Source: Rhodospirillaceae bacterium (GTDB taxonomy: Bacteria > Pseudomonadota > Alphaproteobacteria > Rhodospirillales > Casp-alpha2). Taken from it: a DNA stretch of 32,143 nucleotides. Shown piece after piece: positions 3,101 to 16,980 of the stretch; position 1 is the first letter of the stretch; every line of letters starts with the position of its first letter. The stretch is taken from NCBI GenBank assembly GCA_002686255.1, contig NZAZ01000135.1:1-32143 (forward strand), written 5' to 3'. The notes beneath the pieces are model-generated. The model had not been told where the DNA came from and ran no database searches. It saw nothing but the letters and a program-made list of their open reading frames with translations. A program made the translations under genes and the position numbers.

Positions 3101-3787
3101 TCATCGGGGTCCGGCGAGGGCGCGCACTTGTTGCATCAGCGCTTCGGCGCGAAACGCCCCCGACGCGCCGACATCGAACCCCGCGGCCGCGAGAGCGCGG
3201 GCGGTCCAGGTGTTGCAGGTATTGAAGAGGTGAAAGCTGCCCTTCGCGGGATAAAAACGGCTCGTGGCGTAGAGCCCCGGTCCCGTGGCGGCGGCGCGCG
3301 CGGCTCCGGAGCGCTCGAAGGTGGCGTCGAGGAAATCGACGAGACGGCGGAAGTTTTCATCGTCGATCGGAAGTGAAACAACCTCGGCCTTGGGGTAGAC
3401 GCGCGCCGGTTCCCCCCACAGGCCGGCGACATGAACCACGGCCGGGGTCGGAACGAGCGCGGCCTGCAAGGACATGCCGAAGGTCGGCTGCTTGGCCGGA
3501 TAGTAGACGGCGTCGCCCCAGCCGAACTCGAGGAAACGCGCCTCGGGGAAATCCGCCGTCTCGGGAAGCCGATCGGGCGGCAGGTCGGCCTTCGCCACGA
3601 CAATGCCGCTGTGCCAGCCGTTGCTGGTGACGAAGATGACGGTCTTCGCGCCCAGGTAGGTTGGGCTCGGGGGCGGGGCGGGCGGCGGCGGCGCACAGGC
3701 CGTCAGCAGCAACGCCAGCACCGGCACGATCCAAGGCCGGGGTCGCGGGAGACGAATGTCGTCGGATCGTCGCCTAAATATCGGCAT
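3101..3787 (-). CDS. DUF2459-family lipoprotein
   Basis: A 228-residue predicted lipoprotein. The N-terminus has a basic stretch, a hydrophobic segment (WIVPVLALLLTAC) and a lipobox LTAC with the lipidated Cys at residue 31, then a proline-rich linker. The body has the features I associate with DUF2459 (TIGR02117, first noted near urease genes): VTSNGWHSGIVV, FLEFGWGDAVYY and FHLFNTCNTWTARAL. The conserved His and Cys suggest a papain-like or NlpC/P60-like fold, but that is inference and no activity is known. The ATG at 3787 has AGGA eight bases upstream. No urease genes are in the window. Confidence 0.8.
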   Translation of the reverse strand: MPIFRRRSDDIRLPRPRPWIVPVLALLLTACAPPPPAPPPSPTYLGAKTVIFVTSNGWHSGIVVAKADLPPDRLPETADFPEARFLEFGWGDAVYYPAKQPTFGMSLQAALVPTPAVVHVAGLWGEPARVYPKAEVVSLPIDDENFRRLVDFLDATFERSGAARAAATGPGLYATSRFYPAKGSFHLFNTCNTWTARALAAAGFDVGASGAFRAEALMQQVRALAGPR

Positions 3788-3874
3788 GCGGTTTATCCTA
3801 AATCACCGTAGGGTCATTCCAGCAGTAATACCAAGGAGCGGTGGCCAATCTTGCATCTCGGGCCTAGGCGCCAG

Positions 3875-4564
3875 TCAGGATCGCTTTTTGAGTATCATGA
3901 ACCGTGCCTGAAAGCCGCTTTCCCGCCAAGCGAAATGGGTGATGAACGTGTGCCCCAAGAGCAAGAGTGTGAGCCCCCATTCGAAAGCATCCTCGTAGCG
4001 GCGGTAATCATCATAAAACGCCCAGGACAACAGGCTGACCGCCCCCAGGATAGCAACGGCGCCGCAGATCGCCACGAGGCTCCGGTATGTTGACACCGAC
4101 ATCGGCACACCCCGCGTTCTCACCACCGACGCTATCTGGACGGTCATCAATAGTTGGGCGGGGTAAGTAAAGATGTAGAAAAGGATCATGCCGATGCGGC
4201 GTTGCTGGCGATAGAGATCACCCGCCTCACCCAAGAGGCTGGAATAGACAAACAGACCCAAGGCCGCCGCCATTCCGAGCCATGCCATGGCGCGGTTGAG
4301 TCGAACCATGCGCGTTCCCAGTGCCTTGAGCCAGCCTGAACTGAGTCTCCAGTAGATCATCATCAAGACGGCGGTAGGGATGATCGCGGCGCGGAAAACG
4401 ACACTCTCGGGACGATGACGCCCGGTGGCGCTGATGGATACGCAGTCCGGGAAGTAAGGAAAGCACCACGAGACATGGCCTTGATTGGCGGCCAGAAGAT
4501 AACTGATGTGAACGGCGACAGCGGGTAGCAGGGCCGTCGCCAAGGGAATGGCTTTCAGTTTCAT
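3875..4564 (-). CDS. Six-TM membrane protein, possibly Frag1/DRAM/Sfk1 family
   Basis: About 229 residues from the ATG at 4564, chosen because AAAGGA lies five to eight bases upstream; an upstream start at 4597 has no such site. Six hydrophobic segments are visible, among them IPLATALLPAVAVHISYLLA, AAIIPTAVLMMIYW, AMAWLGMAAALGLFVYSSLL and WGLTLLLLGHTFITHFAW. The loop CFPYFPDCVSISATGRHRPE and the following FRAAIIP recall the 'PYISDTG..PPE..F' loop of the Frag1/DRAM/Sfk1 family. The match is by eye only. Bacterial members have no defined role. A LexA-type box lies 167 bp upstream, but in the opposite orientation. Confidence 0.7.
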   Translation of the reverse strand: MKLKAIPLATALLPAVAVHISYLLAANQGHVSWCFPYFPDCVSISATGRHRPESVVFRAAIIPTAVLMMIYWRLSSGWLKALGTRMVRLNRAMAWLGMAAALGLFVYSSLLGEAGDLYRQQRRIGMILFYIFTYPAQLLMTVQIASVVRTRGVPMSVSTYRSLVAICGAVAILGAVSLLSWAFYDDYRRYEDAFEWGLTLLLLGHTFITHFAWRESGFQARFMILKKRS

Positions 4565-4704
4565 CCGTATCCTTTCCCGGGTGGGGCCATCGGGCAATTA
4601 ACCCACTCCCACGAAATACCAACTCTTGCTTAGACTCGGCGCCGAAGAAAGGGCATCGGGTCGCCTTCGGGTCGATTGAGGGTTAAAAAAAATCCTGTCC
4701 GGGC

Positions 4705-4745
4705 TTGAAAACCGTCTCGAAACCGATTATGTTCTTTTTTTGTTC
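4705..4745 (+). promoter_or_regulatory. Sigma70-like promoter overlapped by a LexA-type SOS box
   Basis: A -35 element TTGAAA (4705-4710) and a -10 element TATGTT (4728-4733) are separated by 17 bp. The box GTTC-TTTTTTT-GTTC (4731-4745) overlaps the -10 element and the start region. GTTC-N7-GTTC is the established LexA operator of alphaproteobacteria. The N7 here is all T, so chance in a T-rich tract is possible, but the overlap with a well-spaced promoter argues for a real site. Confidence 0.6.
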
Positions 4746-4878
4746 TTTTACAGGGTGAATACCGCCCTCTCGACCGTTCGGGCCGACAACGCCGGGATGG
4801 ACGGGAAACGGGCCAGGAAAACCGGGGCCGGACGGCGGGCCGTCGGGAATTCGCGCCCGCGGTGGAAATGCAGATCTT

Positions 4879-4918
4879 TGCCTACTTATGCCTACTTATG
4901 CCTACCAATGCCTACCTT
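4879..4918 (+). repeat. Four tandem decamers, consensus TGCCTACYWA
   Basis: TGCCTACTTA occurs twice, then TGCCTACCAA and TGCCTACCTT, all in exact 10-bp register. A related set (TGCCGACTTA, TGCCGACCGA, TGCTGACCTT) lies on the minus strand at 13513-13546, with similar flanks (TTGCC before and ACCTTTC at the end). Confidence 0.85.
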
Positions 4919-4974
4919 TCGACGGGGATTCGGGCTTGTCTCGTTTTAAATCAAAGGCTTAGGCCGTTTCGACC

Positions 4975-5014
4975 CGCCTTTAAACGTCCTTTAACGCCTT
5001 TGAACGCCCTTAAA
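4975..5014 (-). repeat. Four tandem decamers overlapping the pccB stop codon
   Basis: On the minus strand the units are TTTAAGGGCG, TTCAAAGGCG, TTAAAGGACG and TTTAAAGGCG, in exact 10-bp register. The pccB stop codon TAA lies inside the first unit. The unit sequence is unrelated to that of the array at 4879-4918, but the period and copy number are the same. Confidence 0.8.
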
Positions 5015-6542
5015 GCGGGATGTTGCCGTGCTTCTTCCACGGGTTGTCGAGTTTCTTGGTGCGCAGCATGCCGAGGCTCTTGGCGATCCTGAGGCGCGTG
5101 TTGTGGGGCATGATGACGTCGTCGATGTAGCCCCGGTGCCCGGCGATGAACGGGTTGGCGAAACGCCGGCGGTATTCCTCGGTGCGCTCGGCGATCTTTT
5201 CCTCGTCGCCGATGTCGCCGCGGAAGATGATCTCGACCGCCCCCTTCGGCCCCATGACCGCGATCTCAGCCGACGGCCAGGCGAAGTTGACGTCGCCGCG
5301 CAGGTGCTTCGAGCTCATGACGTCGTACGCCCCGCCATAGGCCTTGCGGGTAATCACCGTCACCTTGGGCACCGTCGCCTCGGCAAAGGCGAACAGCAGC
5401 TTCGCCCCGTGCTTGATGATGCCGCCCAGTTCCTGCGCCGTGCCGGGCAAAAAGCCGGGCACGTCGACGAAGGTGACGATGGGGATATTGAAGCAGTCGC
5501 AGAACCTGACGAACCGCCCGCCCTTGATCGAGGACGAGATATCGAGGCAACCGGCCACCACCATCGGTTGATTGGCGACGATGCCGACGGTGGCGCCTTC
5601 CATGCGCCCGAAGCCGATGATGATGTTGGCGGCGTAATCGGGCTGCAGCTCGAAGAAATCGCCTTCGTCGACCACCTTTTCGATCAACTCCTTCATGTCA
5701 TAAGGCTTGGCCGGGTCGTCGGGGATCAGGGTGTCCAGCGATTCCTCGACCCGGTCGCCGGGGTCCGGCGTCGGCCTTGACGGCGGGCGTTCGGTGTTGT
5801 TGGCGGGCAGGAAGTCGATGAAGCGGCGCACCGACAGCAACGCCTCGGCGTCGTTGTTGAACGCCTTGTCGGCGACGCCCGACGTCGTGGTGTGGGTGCC
5901 GGCGCCGCCCAGTTCCTCGAGCGTCACTTCCTCGTGGGTGACGGTCTTCACCACGTCGGGGCCGGTGACGAACATATACGACGTGTCCCGGACCATGAAG
6001 ATGAAGTCGGTCATCGCCGGCGAATACACAGCCCCCCCGGCGCACGGCCCCATGATCAGGGAAATCTGCGGCACCACGCCGGATGCCAGGACGTTGCGTT
6101 GGAACACCTCGGCATAGCCGCCCAGCGACGTCACTCCTTCCTGGATGCGCGCGCCGCCGGAATCGTTGATGCCGACCACCGGCGCCCCGACCTTCATCGC
6201 CTGGTCCATGATCTTGCAGATTTTCCCGGCGTGGGCTTCGGACAGCGAGCCGCCGAAGACGGTGAAATCCTGGCTGAAGACGAATATCAGCCGTCCGTTG
6301 ACGGTGCCGAAGCCGGTGACGACGCCGTCGCCGGGGATGGTCTTCTCCGCCATGCCGAAATCGGTGGCCTGGTGTTCGACGAACATGTCCCATTCCTCGA
6401 ACGAGCCGGGATCGAGCAGCAGTTCGATGCGTTCGCGCGCCGTCAGCTTGCCCTTGGCGTGCTGGGCGTCGATGCGCTTCTGGCCGCCGCCCTTGCGGGC
6501 GCGTTCACGCTTTTCCTCCAACTGGCGGATGATGTCCTGCAT
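5010..6542 (-). CDS. pccB: Propionyl-CoA carboxylase beta subunit (carboxyltransferase)
   Basis: A 510-residue carboxyltransferase that moves CO2 from carboxybiotin to an acyl-CoA, normally propionyl-CoA. It feeds the methylmalonyl-CoA route from odd-chain fatty acids and branched amino acids. The N-terminal half has [20 protein letters not shown] and [17 protein letters not shown], which form the acyl-CoA and oxyanion site. The C-terminal half has [20 protein letters not shown] and [14 protein letters not shown], which hold the biotin side. The length matches PccB. It lies just downstream of the ATP12 gene. In many relatives pccA is close by; here three other genes intervene. Its stop codon is within a decamer array. 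Confidence 0.95.
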
Positions 6543-7335: not shown

Positions 7336-9318
7336 TTACTTCCCCAACAGGCCCTTCAAGGCGCCGCCGAGGCCTTTGCCGATTTCATCCAGTTTCCTGT
7401 CCATCTTGTCGGTGGTCGAGGCGCCGGAGGACGGCTGTTGGGGCTGCGTTGGCGGGAGCTGGGAAGCAGAAGAAGAGTCCGGCGGCTGTTTGGCCTTGGC
7501 CCGGACCAGGGGCCGGCCGGCCAGGGCGAGCTTGCAATAGTCCGTATCGTCGACATTCCCCGACCCGCCGCCCGGTTCCTTGTTGCCGCCGACGCCGACA
7601 AGTTTGCCAAGCGCGGAAACGCCGCCCTTGGCGATATCGGTGGCGGTGGAGACGGCGCCGGTCACTACGCCGATGGCGGCGCCGCCCAGGTCGGGGAAGG
7701 CCGTCGGGTTGACCAGCGTGCCGCCGACGTTGACCGGCACCATGGTCAGCTTCAGCAGGCTGACTTTCTTGGCCCGGGGATCGATGTTGATGTCGATGGT
7801 CTCGTCCTTCAGGTTGACGCCGCCACGGTCGATCATGCCGAGGCCGCCGGTTTCGAACACCAGCGCCTTGGCTTTTGCCCGGCCCTTGCGGACATCGAAA
7901 TCGGCGACGATGCAACGGATGTCCTTGTCGCCCTTGCTGTCGACGAACGGCAGCGCCGACATCACGTCCGCCGACAGGACGTTGAGAAGGCCGCTTTCGA
8001 CCTTGCCGCCCCGGGTGACGATGCGGGCGCGTCCGTCAAGGCCGACCATGATGGCCCGGACCGAAGAACCGCGGCCCTTCAGGTTGATCGCCGCGTCGAC
8101 CTTGCCGCTGGCGATGCCGGTCAATTTCAGTTGCTCGAGGACGGCCCCGTAATCGATTTGCCGGGCATCCAGGTTGACGGTGATCGCCGGCACCGCGCCG
8201 GAGCCGTCGACAACGATGTTGCCGCTGACCCTACCGCCGCCGATGGTCGCCTTCAGGGGCTTGACGTCGAGCTTCCCGGCGCCGAGGACCAGCGCCAGCT
8301 CGACGTCGTTGACGGCAATGCCGCCGGTGACCAGGCGGCCGATATTGATCCTTACTCTGGCGTCCGCCGCCTTGAGGCCGCCCGTGGGCAGCGGATCGGC
8401 GGCGAACACCCGCTCCCCTTTGCCCTTGGCGTAGGCCTTCCCATCCGGGCCGGGCGCAAGCAGCGCGTCGAGATCGATCAGTTTCGAAGTCAGCTCGGCG
8501 GACACGGCGGGGCGTGCCACCCCGGCCAGGTTCACCGAGGCCCAGCCTTCCAGGTCGCTGCCGCCGATTTCGGCTTTCAGGCCGTCGAGCCGGTAGCCAC
8601 CCTTGGGATCGGACACCGCCGCCGTCACCTTGAAGGCCTGGATCTTGGGCAGGGTCAGTCCCGCCGCCTTGGCCAGGGAGCCGAGCCGACCCGATAATTT
8701 AACCGCCTGGCCGTTCAAATCGCCGGTCAGCGCGATGTTCATCGGCGCGTCGAGGCCGTAGCTCTGGATATCCAGGTTGGCGATGCGAAGGGCGGTCTTT
8801 TTCCCGCTTCGGCCATCACGATAGGTCAGGTTGAGGTCCTCGATCCGGACCCGGTTCACCACCGGCAACGTCCCGGGACCCGAGGATTTAGGCTCGGCTT
8901 TTCCTTGGGCCGTTAACCCCGTGGGGTCCAGTTCCCAGTTGCCGCGTCCTTTGGCATCGGTTTCGGCCCAAAGGTCCAGCCCGACCAGCACCAGCCTCTT
9001 GACCCGGACATCGCCGCTCAGCAACGGCAGCAGTTCAACCTCGGCGGCAAGCCGTTTCAGCTTGACCATTTCCCCCCGCGATCCCCAAGGCGCGTTGGCG
9101 AAGGTCACCCCTTCCACGGCCACGGACGGCCTCAAGGACAGGGCCAGGTTCAATTCTCCGGAAATGGTCAAATCGCGGCCCGTCGCGGACTTAACCTGTT
9201 CCGCGATCAGCCCCCGGTATTGGTTGAAATCCAGGGACTTGATGATAACGATCCCGGTCACCACCCCGGCCGCTGCCAGGATGACGACGCTGGAAAGGAT
9301 CTTTCTCCAATGTTTCAT
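7336..9318 (-). CDS. AsmA-family envelope protein
   Basis: A 660-residue protein with an N-terminal membrane anchor (ILSSVVILAAAGVVTGIVII, about residues 8-27) and a long periplasmic beta-rich body. The N-terminal AsmA pattern is clear (SATGRDLTISGELNLALSL, then VEGVTFANAPWG). The C-terminal part (GGVNLKDETIDINIDPRAKK, then PVNVGGTLVNPTAFPDL) matches the AsmA C-terminal domain. AsmA-like proteins are linked to outer-membrane assembly and lipid transport, so this is probably an envelope maintenance gene. A low-complexity Ser/Pro/Gln segment lies near the C-terminus. Its ATG overlaps the HAD stop by four bases (ATGA), so translation is probably coupled. Confidence 0.85.
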   Translation of the reverse strand: MKHWRKILSSVVILAAAGVVTGIVIIKSLDFNQYRGLIAEQVKSATGRDLTISGELNLALSLRPSVAVEGVTFANAPWGSRGEMVKLKRLAAEVELLPLLSGDVRVKRLVLVGLDLWAETDAKGRGNWELDPTGLTAQGKAEPKSSGPGTLPVVNRVRIEDLNLTYRDGRSGKKTALRIANLDIQSYGLDAPMNIALTGDLNGQAVKLSGRLGSLAKAAGLTLPKIQAFKVTAAVSDPKGGYRLDGLKAEIGGSDLEGWASVNLAGVARPAVSAELTSKLIDLDALLAPGPDGKAYAKGKGERVFAADPLPTGGLKAADARVRINIGRLVTGGIAVNDVELALVLGAGKLDVKPLKATIGGGRVSGNIVVDGSGAVPAITVNLDARQIDYGAVLEQLKLTGIASGKVDAAINLKGRGSSVRAIMVGLDGRARIVTRGGKVESGLLNVLSADVMSALPFVDSKGDKDIRCIVADFDVRKGRAKAKALVFETGGLGMIDRGGVNLKDETIDINIDPRAKKVSLLKLTMVPVNVGGTLVNPTAFPDLGGAAIGVVTGAVSTATDIAKGGVSALGKLVGVGGNKEPGGGSGNVDDTDYCKLALAGRPLVRAKAKQPPDSSSASQLPPTQPQQPSSGASTTDKMDRKLDEIGKGLGGALKGLLGK

Positions 9319-10001
9319 TTTGAAACCTTTCCCAGGGTTTCGATCGTTTTGGGCAAATCCCGAAATTCATCGATGACGGCCTGGGCTCCGGCGGCGTACA
9401 GATGCTCCCCCGGATGATACCCCCAAGAGACGCCGAGGGCCATGGTGCCGGCGCGTTTCGCCATTTCCATGTCGAAGGTGGTGTCGCCGATCATCACCGT
9501 GGCCGCCGGATCGGCGCCGGTTTCCCTCATGGCGTTCAGCAACATGTCTGGGTTCGGCTTGCCGGGACCGCTGTCGGCGGTTTGCAGGGTCTGGAAACGG
9601 TCGGTCAGGCGGTGGGTTTCAAGGGTCATGAGAAGGCCCCGGCGGCTTTTTCCCGTCGCCACGCCCAGGACCCATCCCGCCGCCTCCAGAACCTCCAGGA
9701 CCTCCAGGGCGCCGGGATAAAGAGGATCATGGACTTCCCCTTTGTTCCTGAGGTCGGTAAAGGCTTCCTTATAGCTTATCACCAGCCCGTCGTGATCGTC
9801 CGGACCGGCGTCGGGAAGCAACCGCACCATGGCCTCGCACAGCGGCAGCCCGACCACCTGGCGCACCGCTTCGGCTTCCGGCCTGGGGTGGGCGCGGGCG
9901 TCGAAAGCGCTGAACATGGAGGAAATGATCGAATGTTGTGAATCGACCAGGGTGCCGTCACAGTCGAAAACGGCCAATCGCGGGGAACGGGATTCAGGCA
10001 T
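9315..10001 (-). CDS. HAD-family hydrolase, phosphoglycolate phosphatase-like
   Basis: A 228-residue HAD hydrolase (subfamily IA). Motif I is FDCDGTLVDS (nucleophile Asp13, Asp15), motif II is the GVATGKSRRG region, a Lys is in KPNPDMLL, and motif IV is MIGDTTFDMEMA. The insert after motif I is the helical cap of the Gph/PGP type. The likely reaction is dephosphorylation of a small phosphate ester such as 2-phosphoglycolate, but substrate cannot be read from sequence. In alphaproteobacteria a HAD gene often follows rluC in this cluster. The stop overlaps the asmA start. Confidence 0.88.
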   Translation of the reverse strand: MPESRSPRLAVFDCDGTLVDSQHSIISSMFSAFDARAHPRPEAEAVRQVVGLPLCEAMVRLLPDAGPDDHDGLVISYKEAFTDLRNKGEVHDPLYPGALEVLEVLEAAGWVLGVATGKSRRGLLMTLETHRLTDRFQTLQTADSGPGKPNPDMLLNAMRETGADPAATVMIGDTTFDMEMAKRAGTMALGVSWGYHPGEHLYAAGAQAVIDEFRDLPKTIETLGKVSK

Positions 10002-11952: not shown

Positions 11953-13239
11953 CTAGTCCTTTTGGCGGCGCAGTTTATCCCAGTAATCGAGCCGTTTGGC
12001 GATTTCGCGCTCGAACCCCCGCTCGCCGGGCTCATATAAGCGCGTGCGCGTCATGCCGTCGGGAAAATAGTTCCGGCCGGAAAAGCCTTCTTCGGTGTCG
12101 TGGTCGTATTCGTAACCGGCGCCGTATCCCAGGTCCTTCATCAACCCCGTCGGCGCGTTGAGGATATGCTTCGGCGGATCGAGGGACCCCGTCTCCCGCG
12201 CCGCTTTCGCCGCCGTTTTTTCGGCCTTGTAGGCGGCGTTGGATTTGGGCGCCGTGGCCAGATAAATGACGCTTTGCACGATCGCCAGTTCGCCTTCCGG
12301 CGAGCCCAGGCGCTCATAGGCTTCCCAGGCGGTAATGGATTGCACCAGGGCCTGCGGATCGGCGAGGCCGATGTCCTCGGAGGCGAAACGGACCAACCGC
12401 CGGGCGATATAGCGGGGGTCTTCGCCCCCGGCCAGCATCCTGGCCAGCCAATAAAGCGCCGCGTCGGCATCTGATCCGCGAAGCGATTTATGGAGCGCGC
12501 TGATGAGGTTGTAATGGCCCTCCTGCGACTTGTCGTAAAGCGGCACCCGGCGCTGCACCACCCCGGTCAACTGGGCGGTGTCGATGAGCGGTGTATCGGG
12601 CAGCGCCAACACCGATTCGACCATGTTCAAAAGGTACCGCCCGTCGCCGTCGGCCATGGCGCGGAGCGCGGCCCTGGCGTCGGCGTCCAGGGGCAGGGCC
12701 CGGCCTTCCAGTTTTTCGGCCCGGACCAGCAACTCTTCCAACGATCCGTCGCCGAGCCGGTTCAGCACCAGCACCTGGGTCCGGGACAAAAGCGGGGCGT
12801 TGAGCTCGAACGACGGATTTTCCGTCGTCGCGCCGACCAGGATCACGGTGCCGTCCTCCACATAGGGAAGGAACCCGTCCTGCTGGGCGCGGTTGAAACG
12901 ATGGATTTCGTCAACGAAAAGCAGGGTTCCCTGACCCATTTCGCGTTTTTGCCGCGCCGTTTCGAACACCTTGCGCAAGTCGGCGACGCCGGAGAACACC
13001 GCCGACAGGCGTTCGAAATGCAAATCAGAAATGTCCGCCAACAGCCAGGCGATGGTGGTCTTGCCGGTGCCCGGCGCCCCCCAAAGGATGATCGAGTTGA
13101 GCTTCCCCGATTCCACCATCTTCGATATCGGCCCGTCGCCGCAAAGCAGGTGGTCCTGGCCGACGACTTCGGAAAGGTCCTTCGGCCGCAGGCGGTCGGC
13201 CAGGGGGCGCGGGGCGCCGGATTCGAAGAGCGTGCTCAT
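11953..13239 (-). CDS. rarA: Replication-associated recombination protein A (RarA/MgsA AAA+ ATPase)
   Basis: A 428-residue AAA+ ATPase of the RarA/MgsA/WRNIP1 family, which acts at stalled replication forks and is related to clamp loaders. Walker A is GAPGTGKT (54-61) and Walker B is LLFVDEIHRFN (106-116). Sensor 1 is GATTENPSFELN, and the C-terminal tetramerisation part has KSLRGSDADAALYWLARML and ARRLVRFASEDIGLADP. The length is normal. The ATG at 13239 has GGAGAAG upstream. A small gene with a strong ribosome-binding site ends 17 bp before it and may be translated from the same mRNA. Confidence 0.95.
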   Translation of the reverse strand: MSTLFESGAPRPLADRLRPKDLSEVVGQDHLLCGDGPISKMVESGKLNSIILWGAPGTGKTTIAWLLADISDLHFERLSAVFSGVADLRKVFETARQKREMGQGTLLFVDEIHRFNRAQQDGFLPYVEDGTVILVGATTENPSFELNAPLLSRTQVLVLNRLGDGSLEELLVRAEKLEGRALPLDADARAALRAMADGDGRYLLNMVESVLALPDTPLIDTAQLTGVVQRRVPLYDKSQEGHYNLISALHKSLRGSDADAALYWLARMLAGGEDPRYIARRLVRFASEDIGLADPQALVQSITAWEAYERLGSPEGELAIVQSVIYLATAPKSNAAYKAEKTAAKAARETGSLDPPKHILNAPTGLMKDLGYGAGYEYDHDTEEGFSGRNYFPDGMTRTRLYEPGERGFEREIAKRLDYWDKLRRQKD

Positions 13240-13256
13240 GTCTTCTCCGGCCCCGG

Positions 13257-13430
13257 CTAGGGTCTTTCCGGCCCAAATTGGATCAATTCTGTTTCTCGAT
13301 TGGCGCGGCTATCCGGTGCCGAAACGGTTGCAGGGCGGACTTCGGCATGCTGTTCGGGGGGCGCGAACTCGTCCCCGTTGGGGACATGGAGAACCGGCGG
13401 CGCGTTGATGGTGATTTCCCTGCCGCTCAT
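13257..13430 (-). CDS. Small hypothetical protein, 57 residues, upstream of rarA
   Basis: An open frame runs from the ATG at 13430 to TAG at 13257, giving a 57-residue, Pro/Glu-rich product beginning MSGREITINAPPVLHVPNGD. The start has a strong ribosome-binding site (AGGAG, nine bases before the ATG), unlike random frames here. It ends 17 bp before rarA and lies directly left of the left direct repeat of the island. There is no signal peptide, membrane segment or recognisable domain. Before the island arrived, it would have followed htrA. The call rests on the ribosome-binding site, position and codon use, not on similarity. Confidence 0.6.
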   Translation of the reverse strand: MSGREITINAPPVLHVPNGDEFAPPEQHAEVRPATVSAPDSRANRETELIQFGPERP

Positions 13431-13464
13431 GGTCTAATTCTCCTGCAAGTTTTTCTTATTTTGA

Positions 13465-13505
13465 ACGTTATCGCATTATCAATGACGGGGCCAACCCGCG
13501 CCCCA
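13465..13505. repeat. Left direct repeat flanking the accessory island
   Basis: Positions 13465-13504 match 15467-15506 at 34 of 40 positions in the same orientation. Shared blocks include GCATTATC and GACGGGGCCAACCCG. The two copies bracket the only accessory genes between htrA and rarA, so they are candidates for attachment sites or for a duplication made on insertion. Confidence 0.7.
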
Positions 13506-13512
13506 CGCCGCC

Positions 13513-13617
13513 GGAAAGGTCAGCATCGGTCGGCATAAGTCGGCAACCGGTCATCTTCCGGTACACACCGGGCAGGCATTCGGTAAACATTCCGGTCAAC
13601 ATCGGGTCATCCTCCGG
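13513..13617 (-). repeat. Degenerate 10-12 bp tandem repeats after the TerS-like gene
   Basis: On the minus strand the pattern TGnnnACCgga recurs about nine times, for example TGTTGACCGGAA, TGTTTACCGAA, TGTGTACCGGAAGA, TGCCGACTTA, TGCCGACCGA and TGCTGACCTT. The last three units are in exact 10-bp register and are near-copies of those at 4879-4918. The first units overlap the stop codon of the TerS-like gene, whose last residues LTGG are encoded by one of them. Confidence 0.65.
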
Positions 13618-14092
13618 TAAGCGCCCGCCCGCCGGGTCCGGCGCGGCCGGCCCGGCCGAGCAGCGTTTCGGCCTCGGCGACGATGTCGGCGGCCGAACGG
13701 GCGGCCGTCCCCGGCGGCGCCGGCGGCAGCGGCGGCAGCCGGGGCAGCGCCGCGCGGCGCTCCTTGAGGATGCCCAGCCTCGCCTGCAGCTCGACGGCGC
13801 GCGCCGCGGTGTGGAAGTGGTGGTCCTCGATGGCGCGGCGGTAGACGTTCTCGAGCTTGCCGATCAGCACCTCGGTGTCGCGGCCCTGGTCGCGGCAAAG
13901 CTGGGCGTGGAGGGCGCGGATGCGGGCGCGCACGCGCTCGGTCCTCAACAGCCGGTAGCCCTGCTGCTTGGCCGAGCCGCGGGCGTAGCCGGCCTCGGAG
14001 GCCGCCACCGAGGCGTTGGCGTAGTTGATGAAGGCGTGGCAGAACCGCTCCTGCCTGGGGGTGAGAAGTTTCCTGGGAATAGGGGGTTCCAT
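13607..14092 (-). CDS. Phage terminase small subunit-like protein (Terminase_2)
   Basis: A 161-residue protein whose residues about 9-60 match the terminase small subunit pattern: LTPRQERFCHAFI, NASVAASEAGY, then QGYRLLRTERVRARI, a DNA-binding helix-turn-helix. The middle is helical (GRDTEVLIGKLENVYRRAIED, in shortened form). The C-terminus is Ala/Pro/Gly-rich. TerS recognises packaging sites in phage DNA, but there is no large terminase, portal or other phage gene here, so its role in this island is unknown. The reading frame is open up to 14257, but a near-consensus promoter at 14126-14154 would start transcription near 14119, which fixes the ATG at 14092. Its stop codon lies in a tandem-repeat tract. 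Confidence 0.75.
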   Translation of the reverse strand: MEPPIPRKLLTPRQERFCHAFINYANASVAASEAGYARGSAKQQGYRLLRTERVRARIRALHAQLCRDQGRDTEVLIGKLENVYRRAIEDHHFHTAARAVELQARLGILKERRAALPRLPPLPPAPPGTAARSAADIVAEAETLLGRAGRAGPGGRALTGG

Positions 14093-14125
14093 GATATTTT
14101 GCCTTTTTTCGGACGCGAAAAAGAA

Positions 14126-14154
14126 AATATAAGCATATTTAGGATAAATGTCAA
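14126..14154 (-). promoter_or_regulatory. Near-consensus sigma70 promoter of the TerS-like gene
   Basis: On the minus strand TTGACA (14149-14154) and TATATT (14126-14131) are separated by exactly 17 bp. The predicted start lies about 27 bases before the ATG at 14092. This is one of the strongest promoters in the window and lies in AT-rich DNA unlike the surrounding genome. Confidence 0.75.
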
Positions 14155-14235
14155 GGACTTTCGAACGAAAAAGGAACACGCCAGCCCGCCCTTTTTCGGC
14201 GCCCATGTCTGGCATAAACATTTCGGTTTCTTCCC

Positions 14236-14301
14236 TTGAATTGACTCTATAATTCATTTATATATTACCGCTGAACACATGTCTACTTTTAATTTATAGA
14301 G
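14236..14301 (+). promoter_or_regulatory. Promoter and possible operator of the XRE gene
   Basis: TTGAAT (14236-14241) and TATATA (14259-14264) are 17 bp apart, about 40 bases before the TTG start at 14302. An imperfect inverted pair, CTCTATAATT (14245-14254) and AATTTATAGAG (14291-14301), brackets the start region and could be the binding site of the XRE protein itself. The operator role is inference. Confidence 0.45.
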
Positions 14302-14553
14302 TTGATAATTACAGACAGCCTTTCCCCGGAGCAATGCAAGGCAGCCAGAGCGTTGCTCCGGCTTCACCAAACCGACTTGTGCGGCCTTGCCGATATAACG
14401 ATCAAAACCCTTTCCGACTTCGAAGGCGGCAAGACCAAGCCCTACGCCAGCACTATTGATAAGATCAAGGACGCCCTGGAAGGGGCCGGGGTTGAGTTCA
14501 TCAACGCGGACAACGGCGGGCCGGGGGCACGACTCCGGGAAGCCGGGGAATAG
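14302..14553 (+). CDS. XRE-family helix-turn-helix regulator
   Basis: An 83-residue single-domain DNA-binding protein. The XRE fold is clear: LSPEQCKAARALLRLHQTDL (helices 1-2), then CGLADITIKTLSDFEGGKTKP (recognition helix and turn), helix 5 STIDKIKDALEGAGVEF, and the ending GGPGARLR common in this alphaproteobacterial subfamily. The start is TTG; no in-frame ATG is available and the ribosome-binding site is weak. The upstream region has a good promoter and an inverted pair, so self-regulation is plausible. It lies divergent to the TerS-like gene and ahead of the NYN gene, making it the likely regulator of the island. Confidence 0.85.
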   Translation: MIITDSLSPEQCKAARALLRLHQTDLCGLADITIKTLSDFEGGKTKPYASTIDKIKDALEGAGVEFINADNGGPGARLREAGE

Positions 14554-14583
14554 CGGTGCTGCCGATCAACATCACCATGATGC

Positions 14584-14613
14584 TTGAAAACAGCACCCAA
14601 TCCGGCGTATATA
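14584..14613 (+). promoter_or_regulatory. Probable sigma70 promoter of the NYN gene
   Basis: TTGAAA (14584-14589) and TATATA (14608-14613) are separated by 18 bp. The start would be near 14620, leaving a leader of about 75 bases that contains a GC-rich hairpin-prone segment (GCCGTTGCCTCCGGGCGGCGGC). Confidence 0.5.
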
Positions 14614-14695
14614 AGGGTCGTATTCTTCCCGGCGGGCATGACCCGTCGGATAGGGCCGTTGCCTCCGGGCGGCGGCCTTTCACTTTGAGGCAGCC

Positions 14696-15310
14696 GTGAA
14701 GCGCCTCGCGGTCTATATCGACGGGTTCAACCTGTACCACGCCATCGACGATCTGCGGCAACCGCATCTCAAGTGGCTGGACCTTTGGGCGCTTGCGGAA
14801 ACGCTGGCCCATCCCCGCGAAACCGTTGCCGCCGTCCATTATTTTTCGGCCTTTCCGACGTGGCGGAAAAAGACCTTCGCCCGGCACCGCGAATATGTGA
14901 AGGCGCTCGAATCCCGTGGCGTCACCGTCCACCTTGCCAGCTTCAAGAAAAAGCCGCGCCAGTGTTTTGCTTGTGGCGCCACCTGGACCGATCATGAGGA
15001 AAAGGAAACGGACGTTCATGTTGCCGTTCAGCTTGTCGCCGACGCCCTAACCAACGCCTTTGACCGGGCCATCCTCATCAGCGCCGATTCAGACCTTGCC
15101 CCGGCCATTCGCAAGGTGCGGGAAGTTGCGCCACGCAAGGCAATCTTGGTTGCCGCGCCGCCGGGCCGGTTTACCCATGCAAGGGACTTGGAGCCGAAAC
15201 TTGAAATCACCAGGGGCCGTGTCGTAAAATGCCTGTTGCCTGAACGGATAGAGGCCGATGGAAAGACAGTCGCCACGCGGCCCGCGAATTACACCCCGCC
15301 GAAGGATTGA
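14696..15310 (+). CDS. NYN-domain (LabA/DUF88-like) putative ribonuclease
   Basis: A 204-residue protein with the NYN/PIN-like nuclease core: AVYIDGFNLYHAI (Asp9, Asn12), the ETDVHVAVQLVADAL helix with Asp106, and ILISADSDLAPAI with Asp131 and Asp133. These acidic residues are the metal site of the NYN family, so RNA cleavage is the likely activity. A CxxC pair (Cys90, Cys93) with a nearby His100 lies in a loop just before Asp106 and could bind zinc; the loop is shared by some DUF88 relatives. It starts with GTG after GAGG with five bases between. A strong palindrome follows its stop. It lies on the same strand as the XRE gene, but with its own promoter. Confidence 0.85.
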   Translation: MKRLAVYIDGFNLYHAIDDLRQPHLKWLDLWALAETLAHPRETVAAVHYFSAFPTWRKKTFARHREYVKALESRGVTVHLASFKKKPRQCFACGATWTDHEEKETDVHVAVQLVADALTNAFDRAILISADSDLAPAIRKVREVAPRKAILVAAPPGRFTHARDLEPKLEITRGRVVKCLLPERIEADGKTVATRPANYTPPKD

Positions 15311-15364
15311 GCGAAAAGGTTGCGGCCTTCACAGGCACGGACCGTGCTTTGCTCGAATTACAAT

Positions 15365-15428
15365 TACGGTGACAGTTTACTAATTAGCTCATCTTTGCCA
15401 TTCGGGTAATTAGTAAACTGTCACCGTA
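15365..15428. repeat. Perfect 22-bp palindrome with T-run (REP-like or terminator)
   Basis: The left arm at 15365-15386 (starting TACGGTGACAGTTTACTAAT) and the right arm at 15407-15428 are perfect inverted copies around a 20-base loop; a run of seven T follows on the plus strand. It lies between the convergent NYN and htrA genes, where it can end transcription from both. The arm sequence recalls palindromes found near REP-associated tyrosine transposases; this is from memory and no such gene is in the window. Confidence 0.85.
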
Positions 15429-15466
15429 TTTTTTTGCCCATCCCCTCAAAAAACGCCAACGGGTAG

Positions 15467-15507
15467 ACGTTAGCGCATTATCCGGGACGGGGCCAACCCG
15501 GGCCCGG
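15467..15507. repeat. Right direct repeat flanking the accessory island
   Basis: This is the second copy of the repeat at 13465-13505 (34 of 40 matching). It ends seven bases before the end of htrA, so it marks the right border of the island. Confidence 0.7.
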
Positions 15508-15513
15508 CCAAAC

Positions 15514-16980
15514 TCAACCGTTGATCGTCAGGCTCAACACCTTGCCGCCGCGGTCGACGGTAATATGCCAACGGCTCGACTTTACAGACATAAGCGAGCG
15601 AAGGTGAGCCACATTGGTAACGTCCTTGCCGTTGACGGACCGCACCAGGTCCCCCAAACGGAAGCCCAGGCGGTTGGCGGGCGAGCCCCTTGTCATCTCG
15701 ATCACCACCACGCCGCCGGCGAATGGATCGAGACCGAATTCATCGGCCAACGCCGGCGACAGGTTGGCGACCTTGGAACCGGCCAGGGGTTGTTGCCCGG
15801 TCAGTACGGTAATATTGCGCCGAGGGGTTTCCGGCGGCGGGGCCAGCAAAAGCTTCAACTCCATCGTCCGCTCCTTGCGCATCACCCGGAGCGCCGCCGT
15901 TTCACCCACCGGCAGCGTGGCGATGCGGTACCGCAGCCCCTTTGGGTCGTTGACTTCACGGCCGTTGACGGCCAACACCACGTCGCCGACCCGGAGCCCG
16001 GCCCTGTCGGCGGCCCCGCCTTTGTAGACATTGTTGATCAGCACCCCCGTCGGCCGCTTCATGCCGAGAGACGTGGCGATGTCCTGGGACACCCCCTGCC
16101 CCGAGGCCCCGAGCCAGGGCCGCACCAGCTTGCCGCCGTTGGTAAGGCCGTTGATCACGGCCCGCACCATGTTCGAAGGGATGGCGAAACCGATGCCGAG
16201 GGAACCGCCGCTTTTCGAGAATATGGCGGTGTTCACGCCGACCAACTTGCCGTCCATGGTCACCAGGGCGCCGCCGGAGTTACCCGGATTGATGGCGGCA
16301 TCGGTCTGAATGAAGAAATTAAGGTCCGACGAGGTGACCCGCGTGCGGGCCAACGCCGAAACGATGCCGCTGGTCACCGTCTGGCCGACGCCGAAAGGAT
16401 TGCCGATGGCGAGAACCAGATCCCCGACTTCGAGATCGTCCGAATCGCGGAGCCCCATCACCGGCAGCGAATCCTCGCCGGCCTCGACCTTGAGGATCGC
16501 CAGGTCCGTACGATCATCTGTGAGGACCGAGATGGCGGCGAATTGGCGCCGGTCGGCCAGCACCACGTTGATCTGATCGGCGCCCTCGATGACGTGCTTG
16601 TTGGTGACGATCAGTCCGTCGGAGCGGACGATGACGCCCGAACCGAGGGAGTTCTGTTGCTGCTTGCGGGGCTGCCCGAATCCGAAATCCTGGCCGAAAA
16701 AGCGGCGGAAAAAGGGGTCGTCGAACAGCGGCAGGCTTCTGCGCCCCTGCACCACCTTGCGGGCATAGATGTTGACCACGGCGGGGGCGGCTTTCTTGAC
16801 CAGGGGCGCGAAAGACAGCCGCACCTCGGCTTTCGTGCCGGGCACCTGGCGTTCGGCGGCCTGGCCGTCAAAAGCGGCCAACACCAATGCCAGGGCGGTT
16901 AGGGTTCTAAAAAGGAAAAAGGCAACCACCCGGACTGCCTTTCCTGTAGGTATTCGGCGATCCCGGCGACGGTCGATCAA
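15514..16980 (-). CDS. DegP/HtrA-type periplasmic serine protease
   Basis: A 488-residue secreted protease and chaperone that degrades misfolded envelope proteins. The N-terminal signal peptide has the core [20 protein letters not shown]. The trypsin-like domain has the catalytic triad His129 ([10 protein letters not shown]), Asp159 ([10 protein letters not shown]) and Ser235 ([11 protein letters not shown]). Two PDZ domains follow, about residues 290-375 ([24 protein letters not shown]) and 405-485 ([21 protein letters not shown]). The length fits Do-like DegP/DegQ. The start is TTG, overlapping the rplQ stop by four bases with GGGAGAGG upstream, so translation is coupled to the alpha operon. 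Confidence 0.93.

What the first reader, a model, noticed from the sequence alone, without database searches (positions are those of the whole stretch)
13465..15507. 2-kb accessory island with flanking direct repeats but no integrase
A TerS-like protein, an XRE regulator and an NYN nuclease lie between imperfect 41-bp direct repeats in an otherwise conserved htrA-rarA junction. The island differs from its surroundings in strand, AT-rich intergenic DNA and promoters close to consensus. It carries no recombinase or phage structural gene. It may be a decayed prophage edge, a satellite mobilised in trans, or a small defence or regulatory cassette in which the terminase-like protein has a new role. 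Repeats and genes are seen; mobility and function are inferred.
Basis: partly seen in the sequence, partly recalled or inferred. Interest (0 to 1): 0.7.

Follow-up and report, generated by a model that had tools for sequence, protein, structure and literature searches.

The report
Damage-inducible phage-packaging cassettes scattered in chromosome
The odd 2-kb stretch is a patchwork rather than one mobile island, and its phage-like gene belongs to a family of small, scattered chromosomal cassettes that look switched on by DNA damage and carry what resembles a virus DNA-packaging start signal.

Summary
The repeats and genes are real but are not one mobile unit. The 39-bp repeat is the leader of a dienelactone-hydrolase (DLH) gene that lies between htrA and rarA in 8 of 9 congeners; the window keeps a DLH remnant. 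G008 has the TerS gene at the same DLH leader, without XRE or NYN. The NYN protein is a HEC-09-type defence candidate that elsewhere stands alone.

The TerS gene belongs to a dispersed cassette family (48 of 297 genomes of the order, up to 7 matches each): LexA box and promoter, SPP1/SF6-type TerS, then a helically phased 10-11-bp repeat array. In 40 sampled loci most arrays lack TerS but keep LexA box, box1, an IHF site and array at fixed spacing, like lambda cosB. Array motif follows the TerS recognition helix (Asn with GAYGA 12 of 12; others 0 of 14). The window holds a second, TerS-less copy at 4731-5016.

Best reading: an SOS-induced TerS binds its own cosB/pac-like array and lends it to a phage TerL in trans, as packaging hitch-hiker or interference. 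Anatomy is shown; binding, packaging and mobility are inferred. My literature searches showed no description of it.

The parts
13607..14092 (-). TerS-like protein, 161 aa from ATG; SPP1/SF6-type HTH domain plus helical hairpin
14163..14177 (-). LexA (SOS) box GTTC-N7-GTTC, exact, directly upstream of the TerS promoter
   Evidence: the lexA genes of 7 congeners carry the same box with one mismatch
14126..14154 (-). sigma-70-type promoter TTGACA-17-TATATT of the TerS gene
   Evidence: conserved in G008
13518..13611 (-). phased array after (and over) the TerS stop codon, 11-bp repeats of about ATGTTGACCGG; proposed TerS binding site; no IHF match found here
   Evidence: lag 11, p 0.0085, region chosen after reading it; the G008 copy is clearer (lag 11, p 0.005)
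13465..13503 (-). DLH-side copy of the repeat: leader of the DLH gene
15467..15505 (-). htrA-side copy of the repeat: same leader, followed by about 20 bp more of the old leader
13254..13431 (-). remnant of the DLH gene: start codon region joined to a middle piece; most of the gene is missing
   Evidence: DLH family
14302..14553 (+). small XRE-like regulator
14696..15310 (+). NYN-domain protein, HEC-09-type candidate defence gene
15362..15431 (.). palindrome with 25-bp arms (GTGACAGTTTACTAATTA type); REP/RAYT-like by recall
4731..4745 (+). second, TerS-less element: exact LexA box
4880..4915 (+). second element: box1-like array, 4 x GCCTAC at 10-bp spacing
   Evidence: p 0.0005
4949..4961 (+). 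second element: exact IHF consensus AATCAAAGGCTTA
4975..5016 (+). second element: second phased array (CGCCTTTAAA type), running into the 3' end of the carboxyltransferase gene
   Evidence: p 0.0025

Best explanation
The stretch is a composite of three things at one gene leader: a deleted DLH gene, an XRE-NYN (HEC-09-like) insertion, and one member of a dispersed family of terS-array cassettes. In such a cassette LexA represses the promoter; DNA damage would release it; the TerS-like protein would form a ring (as SPP1/SF6 TerS does) and take up the neighbouring phased array, one HTH per helical turn. In the copies that have an IHF site, IHF would bend the DNA between box1 and the main array, as in lambda cosB. 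The bound TerS would then recruit a large terminase made by a prophage or infecting phage, so that packaging starts in the chromosome at the cassette. This would either carry the cassette and its neighbourhood to a new host or draw the terminase away from the phage. TerS-less cassettes would be sites served in trans. Shown: family, LexA boxes, arrays, IHF sites, spacing, match of array motif to recognition helix, homology to TerS. Inferred: repression by LexA, ring, binding, IHF bending, TerL recruitment, packaging, spread.
For: 48 of 297 order genomes carry the family at E<=1e-10, with up to 7 matches in one genome. Phased repeats after the core: 28 of 49 units p<0.01, lag 10-12 or 22 in 24 of the 28, against 3 of 47 and 3 of 46 control stretches. 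Exact LexA box upstream: 12 of 50 TerS units (0.15 expected, 0 of 46 controls) and 15 of 37 TerS-less arrays (0.22 expected, 1 of 35 controls). IHF consensus: exact in 15 of 41 sampled arrays (0.33 expected, 0 of 41 controls), within 1 mismatch in 38 of 41, 35 of these in register with the array (my count). Box1 to array distance 92+11n nt in 25 of the 28 elements with a recognisable box1. Asn at one helix position goes with GAYGA arrays: 12 of 12 against 0 of 14, p 1e-7; the tree needs 4 changes. Mantel r 0.52, p 0.0002. GACGAC arrays: 11 of 48 TerS-positive and 2 of 249 TerS-negative genomes, the two being congeners. DNA-binding domain fits SF6 TerS (Z 10.8, 0.8 A over 56 residues). None of 37 flanking ORFs of 20 units matches a packaging, tail or integration PHROG. 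lambda cosB is R3-IHF-R2-R1 beside the TerS gene (PMC9026076, passages).
Against: No binding, packaging or induction data. The window's own TerS cassette has no IHF match and its array is degenerate. TerL family PF17289 was found in 1 of 10 congeners; other TerL families were not searched, so the partner is unknown. 21 of 49 TerS units show no significant array, and some of the 28 reflect repeats inside the ORF. Only 3 of 42 distinct viral terS loci had significant repeats just upstream and 4 downstream, several of them low-complexity. None of 15 viral stretches with GACGAC arrays or box1 has a TerS match in the held DNA. PMC4737164 and PMC9611059 (passages) report that SF6/SPP1 TerS shows little sequence specificity in vitro. 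TerS-less copies keep LexA boxes, which a pure docking site would not need.
Confidence: 0.45

Rival explanations
1. The cassettes are a domesticated, SOS-responsive DNA-organising or partition-like system: a TerS-derived ring protein binds dispersed arrays with IHF to hold or mark chromosome sites after damage, without any packaging.
For: Arrays persist at the same gene neighbourhoods in different species (L298/L304, L297/L302, L291/L296, L299/L301). Copies of one genome resemble each other (L288/L289 86% over 266 bp; L287/L290 86% over 185 bp). dN/dS of the TerS core is 0.09-0.49 in 7 of 8 pairs. TerL PF17289 is missing from 9 of 10 congeners.
Against: Patchy presence (48 of 297 genomes); no partner protein noticed; the anatomy is that of phage packaging sites; window/G008 pair has dN/dS 0.65.
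Confidence: 0.25
2. Remnants of prophages or satellites: TerS plus its pac/cos site is simply what is left after decay.
For: Many copies lack TerS; some TerS ORFs are truncated (for example L087, L160); family is homologous to phage TerS.
Against: Same LexA-promoter, box1, IHF, array plan and fixed spacing in copies at unrelated places; no other phage gene among 37 flanking ORFs; most core pairs under purifying selection. A real prophage terS-terL pair in G008 (C211) looks different.
Confidence: 0.15
3. The arrays are replication iterons and the TerS-like HTH protein acts as an initiator or its control.
For: Some viral GACGAC arrays lie in what look like replication genes (judged by eye, not searched).
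Against: Fold and family are TerS; no replication gene noticed beside the units.
Confidence: 0.07
4. One reading: one 2-kb mobile unit of TerS, XRE and NYN bounded by att-like repeats.
For: Single leader copy in G001 and G002, two copies around the island in the window.
Against: TerS alone at the same leader in G008; repeats are a native gene leader; NYN relatives elsewhere stand without XRE or TerS matches in the stretches examined.
Confidence: 0.04

Closest known systems
lambda-type cosB beside the TerS gene Nu1 (R3-IHF-R2-R1)
   Same: TerS gene next to repeated TerS boxes with an IHF site between the first box and the rest, at fixed spacing.
   Different: Chromosomal and multi-copy, no TerL or head genes seen beside it, 10-11-bp phased arrays of up to 11 repeats instead of three 16-bp R boxes, site after the gene, LexA-box promoter; no cosN recognised (not searched).
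SPP1/SF6 small terminase (Terminase_2) and SPP1 pac
   Same: Same protein family and DNA-binding fold; pac of SPP1 has three sets of direct repeats at the terS gene (PMC4737164, passages).
   Different: Solitary in the chromosome, dispersed paralogues with different motifs, LexA box, IHF site.
Phage-inducible chromosomal islands (PICIs, SaPIs) with their own terS or cos-rpp
   Same: Supply a packaging-specificity factor and its site and could borrow the rest from a helper phage.
   Different: No integrase, replication or capsid-redirecting gene, no att-bounded element, about 0.7 kb in size.
Gene transfer agent small terminases (RcGTA)
   Same: Alphaproteobacterial TerS acting on host DNA.
   Different: RcGTA TerS serves a complete head-tail cluster and packages broadly; here there are discrete arrays and no GTA-type TerL in 9 of 10 congeners. 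Comparison partly from recall.
REP elements with solitary RAYT transposases, or MITEs
   Same: Dispersed non-coding copies plus rarer copies with a single protein gene.
   Different: The protein is a terminase small subunit, not a nuclease; no transposition evidence.
HEC-09 (PADLOC candidate defence family)
   Same: The NYN protein matches over its whole length (E 4.6e-56).
   Different: Here it sits behind a small XRE gene; the six other near-full-length relatives do not.

Membership tests
Phage small terminase (Terminase_2, SPP1/SF6 type) | Sequence family | tested here: met
   Pfam PF03592 59 bits, cut-off 26.1; phrog_51 E 3.7e-14; PDB profile hits 21di 1.1e-15, 3zqp 4.5e-15
Phage small terminase (Terminase_2, SPP1/SF6 type) | HTH DNA-binding domain fold | tested here: met
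   VIA-align Z 10.8, rmsd 0.8 over 56 residues to 4zc3; Foldseek best E only 3.7e-3
Phage small terminase (Terminase_2, SPP1/SF6 type) | Ring formation and TerL contact | not testable with these tools
   No complex prediction; helical hairpin 70-117 is a common arrangement in the list
cosB/pac-type packaging site | Repeated TerS boxes next to terS | tested here: met
   28 of 49 units against 3 of 47 and 3 of 46 controls; specificity match 12/12 against 0/14
cosB/pac-type packaging site | IHF site between boxes (lambda type only) | tested here: met
   38 of 41 arrays within 1 mismatch, 1 of 41 controls; TerS units 19 of 49 against 5 of 46; absent from the window's TerS cassette, present in its second element
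cosB/pac-type packaging site | Nicking site (cosN) and packaging from it | not tested
   No cosN search; packaging needs an experiment
PICI / phage satellite | Integrase and att-bounded insertion | tested here: not met
   No integration PHROG in 37 flanking ORFs of 20 units; repeats at the window are a gene leader
Prophage or GTA cluster | TerL and head genes nearby | tested here: not met
   PF17289 only in G008, at C111, C185 and C211; TerS cassettes of G008 are on other contigs, C211 carrying an ordinary prophage terS-terL pair
SOS regulon member | LexA box of the clade at the promoter | tested here: met
   GTTCN7GTTC (alphaproteobacterial box, PMC3091678 passage): 12 of 50 exact, 0.15 expected; window exact at 14163-14177; lexA of 7 congeners has it with 1 mismatch
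SOS regulon member | Induction by DNA damage | not testable with these tools
   Uncultured organisms, no expression data searched
HEC-09 | Profile match over full length | tested here: met
   PDLC04163 E 4.6e-56, residues 1-199 to positions 1-202 of 203
HEC-09 | Anti-phage activity | not testable with these tools
   Candidate family only

The most novel reading that the evidence does not exclude
A new class of minimal selfish or domesticated elements: SOS-controlled terS plus a cosB-like site, and TerS-less sites served in trans, scattered over one chromosome with several mutually distinct specificities, so that any phage large terminase present during damage packages host DNA from many programmed points. 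It would be programmed chromosomal transduction without a prophage or GTA.
Probability: 0.3. Interest if true: 0.93.

Novelty: new variant of a known kind. Interest (0 to 1): 0.78.

Why it matters
How small terminases recognise DNA is an open question: PMC9611059 (passages) states that neither wrapping nor threading models explain sequence specificity. This family offers natural pairs of TerS and array in which one helix residue predicts the motif, with repeats in helical phase, which makes the wrapped-ring model directly testable. If the packaging reading holds, these bacteria carry built-in, damage-triggered start points for moving their own chromosome by borrowed phage heads, which bears on gene transfer and on defence against phages.

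Tried and rejected
Repeat as att site or genome-wide repeat: only two places in the genome, explained as a gene leader. tRNA target: none found. Rfam: no match in the window at gathering thresholds. XRE-NYN as a conserved pair: no XRE match at the six other near-full-length HEC-09 loci; at G008:C132 a 25-residue C-terminal match (E 1e-4) lies before a distant NYN relative. 'BNR-like' gene after htrA in G008: my reading by eye, no Pfam match for the piece tested, so dropped. Presence of the second element in relatives: its neighbour gene was found only in G000 among 10 congeners, so not testable that way; its carboxyltransferase side was not followed. A promoter pattern over the held loci found nothing as written. 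GACGAC arrays in viral contigs: 13 stretches plus 2 with box1, none with a TerS match in the held DNA. VIA-align matches beyond terminases involve the two-helix stretch 70-117 and were not used.

Caveats of the statistics: the class boundary (3 or more GAYGA), the choice of 26 units (dropped: units without a clear array after the core, for example L056, L043, L041, L063, L058, L047, L112, L113, L116, L066, L052) and the regions were set after looking at the sequences. Shuffles are first-order Markov. Related copies are not independent; the tree needs 4 changes (bootstrap 3-5) and does not rule out fewer. In one search the first N/GAYGA table used a wrong residue index and was redone. The 40 array loci were a selection from the listed rows, which were themselves cut for long lists; one of the arrays (L285) has neither box1 nor LexA box and may be chance. 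In one search the window's best signal was a lag-9 repeat inside the ORF, not the array. The genomes are draft MAGs and several arrays lie near contig ends.

Literature: searches in open-access PMC papers; none of the listings showed solitary SOS-controlled terS cassettes (titles and abstract starts seen; passages read in PMC4737164, PMC9611059, PMC9026076, PMC3091678, PMC8565338, PMC12447246). Subscription papers and preprints were not covered.
Full report
1. What is at the coordinates. The window is contig C135 of G000, a draft genome of 3.16 Mb in 167 contigs. Between rarA (11953-13239, minus) and htrA (15514-16980, minus) lie a TerS-like gene (minus), an XRE-like and an NYN gene (plus), and two 39-bp repeat copies, 87% identical. 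There are no tRNA genes and no Rfam matches at gathering thresholds.

2. The repeat is a gene leader. RarA was found in 41 of 41 relatives (in two of them, G012 and G030, only weakly), and htrA ends a fixed distance before it in 8 of 9 congeners and in G020 of the same family. The roughly 0.8-1.1 kb between them reads as one gene; its G008 copy is Pfam DLH, E 3.7e-46. Its leader is the 'repeat', single in G001 and G002. In the window both copies extend past 39 bp, one into the old leader, the other into the DLH start; the DLH gene itself is reduced to a remnant at 13254-13431. In G008 the TerS gene and its tail lie at the DLH leader at about 81% DNA identity to the window over an 874-column alignment, while htrA is on another contig and is followed by unrelated sequence. 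No XRE or NYN match lies on that contig (best E 0.059). So TerS was there before, or independently of, the XRE-NYN insertion.

3. XRE-NYN. The NYN protein matches HEC-09 over its length. HEC-09 was found in 16 of 297 order genomes at E<=1e-10, seven of them near full length including the window. None of the six others has an XRE match. Passages of PMC8565338 describe the Hma system (it does not mention HEC); one passage of PMC12447246 lists HEC-09 among systems correlated with phage susceptibility, not resistance. Activity is unproven.

4. TerS belongs to a dispersed family. With a 21-row profile, 48 of 297 genomes of the order and 30 of 111 genera have matches at E<=1e-10, G008 with seven, G000 with four. 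Of 36 loci from named records most are Rhodospirillales or unclassified alphaproteobacterial MAGs and Defluviicoccus; the last three (Paracoccus, Caccocola, Oscillospiraceae) are distant. Viral contigs gave 80 loci with at most 48% identity. The predicted structure (pLDDT 83, pTM 0.51) fits the SF6 DNA-binding domain. Core dN/dS is 0.09-0.49 in seven of eight pairs and 0.65 for window/G008, with looser tails. None of 37 flanking ORFs at 20 units matched a packaging, tail or integration PHROG; 11 matched other or unknown families, among them a DNA methyltransferase next to the G006 unit. Some of those ORFs may be spurious frames.

5. The array. After the TerS core a 10-11-bp phased repeat appears: 28 of 49 units at p<0.01 against 3 of 47 upstream and 3 of 46 downstream control stretches; 24 of the 28 have best lag 10, 11, 12 or 22. 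The motif differs between units. Among 26 units with an array after the core, those with Asn at the tenth residue from the AGY motif all have three or more GAYGA (12 of 12), the others none (0 of 14), Fisher p 1e-7; on the tree the label changes 4 times against 8.7-8.9 when shuffled. Array similarity follows protein identity (Mantel r 0.52, p 0.0002), and pairs of similar proteins in different genomes have more similar arrays (0.43, 46 pairs) than dissimilar proteins within one genome (0.12, 10 pairs).

6. Arrays without TerS. The pattern of three GACGAC at 11-bp spacing occurs in all 10 genomes of the genus, the backwards control in none. The four-unit pattern occurs in 13 of 297 order genomes: 9 of 10 in the genus, plus G020, G054, G071 and G096, all four TerS-positive. 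In 40 loci fetched 41 arrays were analysed, one with a TerS piece. An exact LexA box lies upstream in 15 of the 37 TerS-less arrays with enough upstream DNA (0.22 expected; control 1 of 35), with one mismatch allowed in 26 of 37 (5.15 expected; control 7 of 35). A box1 (two GAYGAC, 10 bp apart) precedes the array at 92+11n nt in 25 of 28 elements that have it. Between them lies the IHF consensus: exact 15 of 41, within one mismatch 38 of 41, controls 0 and 1 of 41; by my count 35 sit in the same register and strand. In TerS units the figures are 9 and 19 of 49 against 0 and 5 of 46. The IHF consensus itself is recalled.

7. LexA. Upstream of TerS, exact GTTCN7GTTC in 12 of 50 units (0.15 expected, 0 of 46 controls), within one mismatch 28 of 50 (4.5 expected, 3 of 46), a few of these away from the promoter. 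A LexA-type protein was found in 8 of 10 congeners; in the 7 whose start could be read, the lexA gene carries the box with one mismatch 90-143 bp upstream. PMC3091678 (passage) gives this box for alphaproteobacteria.

8. Second element in the window. At 4731-5016 an exact LexA box, 4 x GCCTAC at 10 bp (p 0.0005), an exact IHF site and a second phased stretch (p 0.0025) lie between a Frag1-family gene and a carboxyltransferase gene. It has no TerS.

9. Copying and position. Different loci of G000 share 86% identity over 266 bp (L288/L289) and 185 bp (L287/L290), while several arrays occupy corresponding places in different species. By gene content the aspS and esterase neighbourhoods hold a unit with TerS in one species and without in another (judged by eye). 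This fits copying in the past and long residence; active movement is not shown.

10. Comparison. SPP1 pac has three sets of direct repeats at terS, and DNA wrapping on a ring of HTH domains is a model (PMC4737164, passages); SF6 TerS showed little sequence preference there. PMC9611059 (passages) calls specificity unexplained by present models. lambda cosB is R3-IHF-R2-R1 next to the TerS gene, and PICIs divert TerS or bring cos-rpp (PMC9026076, passages). A 70-kb viral contig, L275, with TerS and a TerL-like ORF (phrog_2, E 1e-23) has a 10-bp phased ATGTCC array just before terS; two more show three such repeats. Overall only 3 of 42 viral terS loci were significant upstream.

11. Verdict. I hold the dispersed, LexA-box-bearing, array-linked family as well supported; TerS binding to its array as likely; packaging or interference in trans as the best but unproven function.

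Noticed in passing
window 4731-5016: A second, TerS-less element with LexA box, two phased arrays and an IHF site, with a different motif (GCCTAC).
   Followed up: partly
window 15362-15431: Near-perfect palindrome with 25-bp arms, found in no held locus other than those overlapping this place; looks REP/RAYT-like by recall. G008 has different palindromes of similar style near its TerS unit (L067, about 8600-9740).
   Followed up: partly
window 13254-13431: DLH gene lost in the window genome but present beside rarA in 9 of 9 congeners read.
   Followed up: yes
L084 (G006:C43), 3212-5205: A C5 DNA methyltransferase gene and a further ORF lie beside a TerS unit, as the HEC-09 gene does in the window; the cassettes might be landing places for defence genes.
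   Followed up: no
L291, L292, L294, L296, L319, L321, L326, L327, L334: Several TerS-less arrays share a nearly identical LexA box GTTCTATAT[TA]TGTTC; in the first four a conserved GCTCTTTGA[CT]AT.GTGAATA stretch follows.
   Followed up: no
L275 1470-1560; L262, L271 upstream of terS: Viral terS genes with 10-11-bp phased ATGTCC repeats just upstream.
   Followed up: partly
L346, L347, L348: Viral contigs with 11-bp GACGACC repeats that look as if they lie in replication genes; possibly origins.
   Followed up: no
G017:C10:17681-18960: rarA homologue split with stop codons in one relative.
   Followed up: no
G000:C62, C100, C114; G009:C8, C18, C37, C41: Many arrays lie within about 1.3 kb of contig ends, so repeated sequence next to them may break assemblies.
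   Followed up: no
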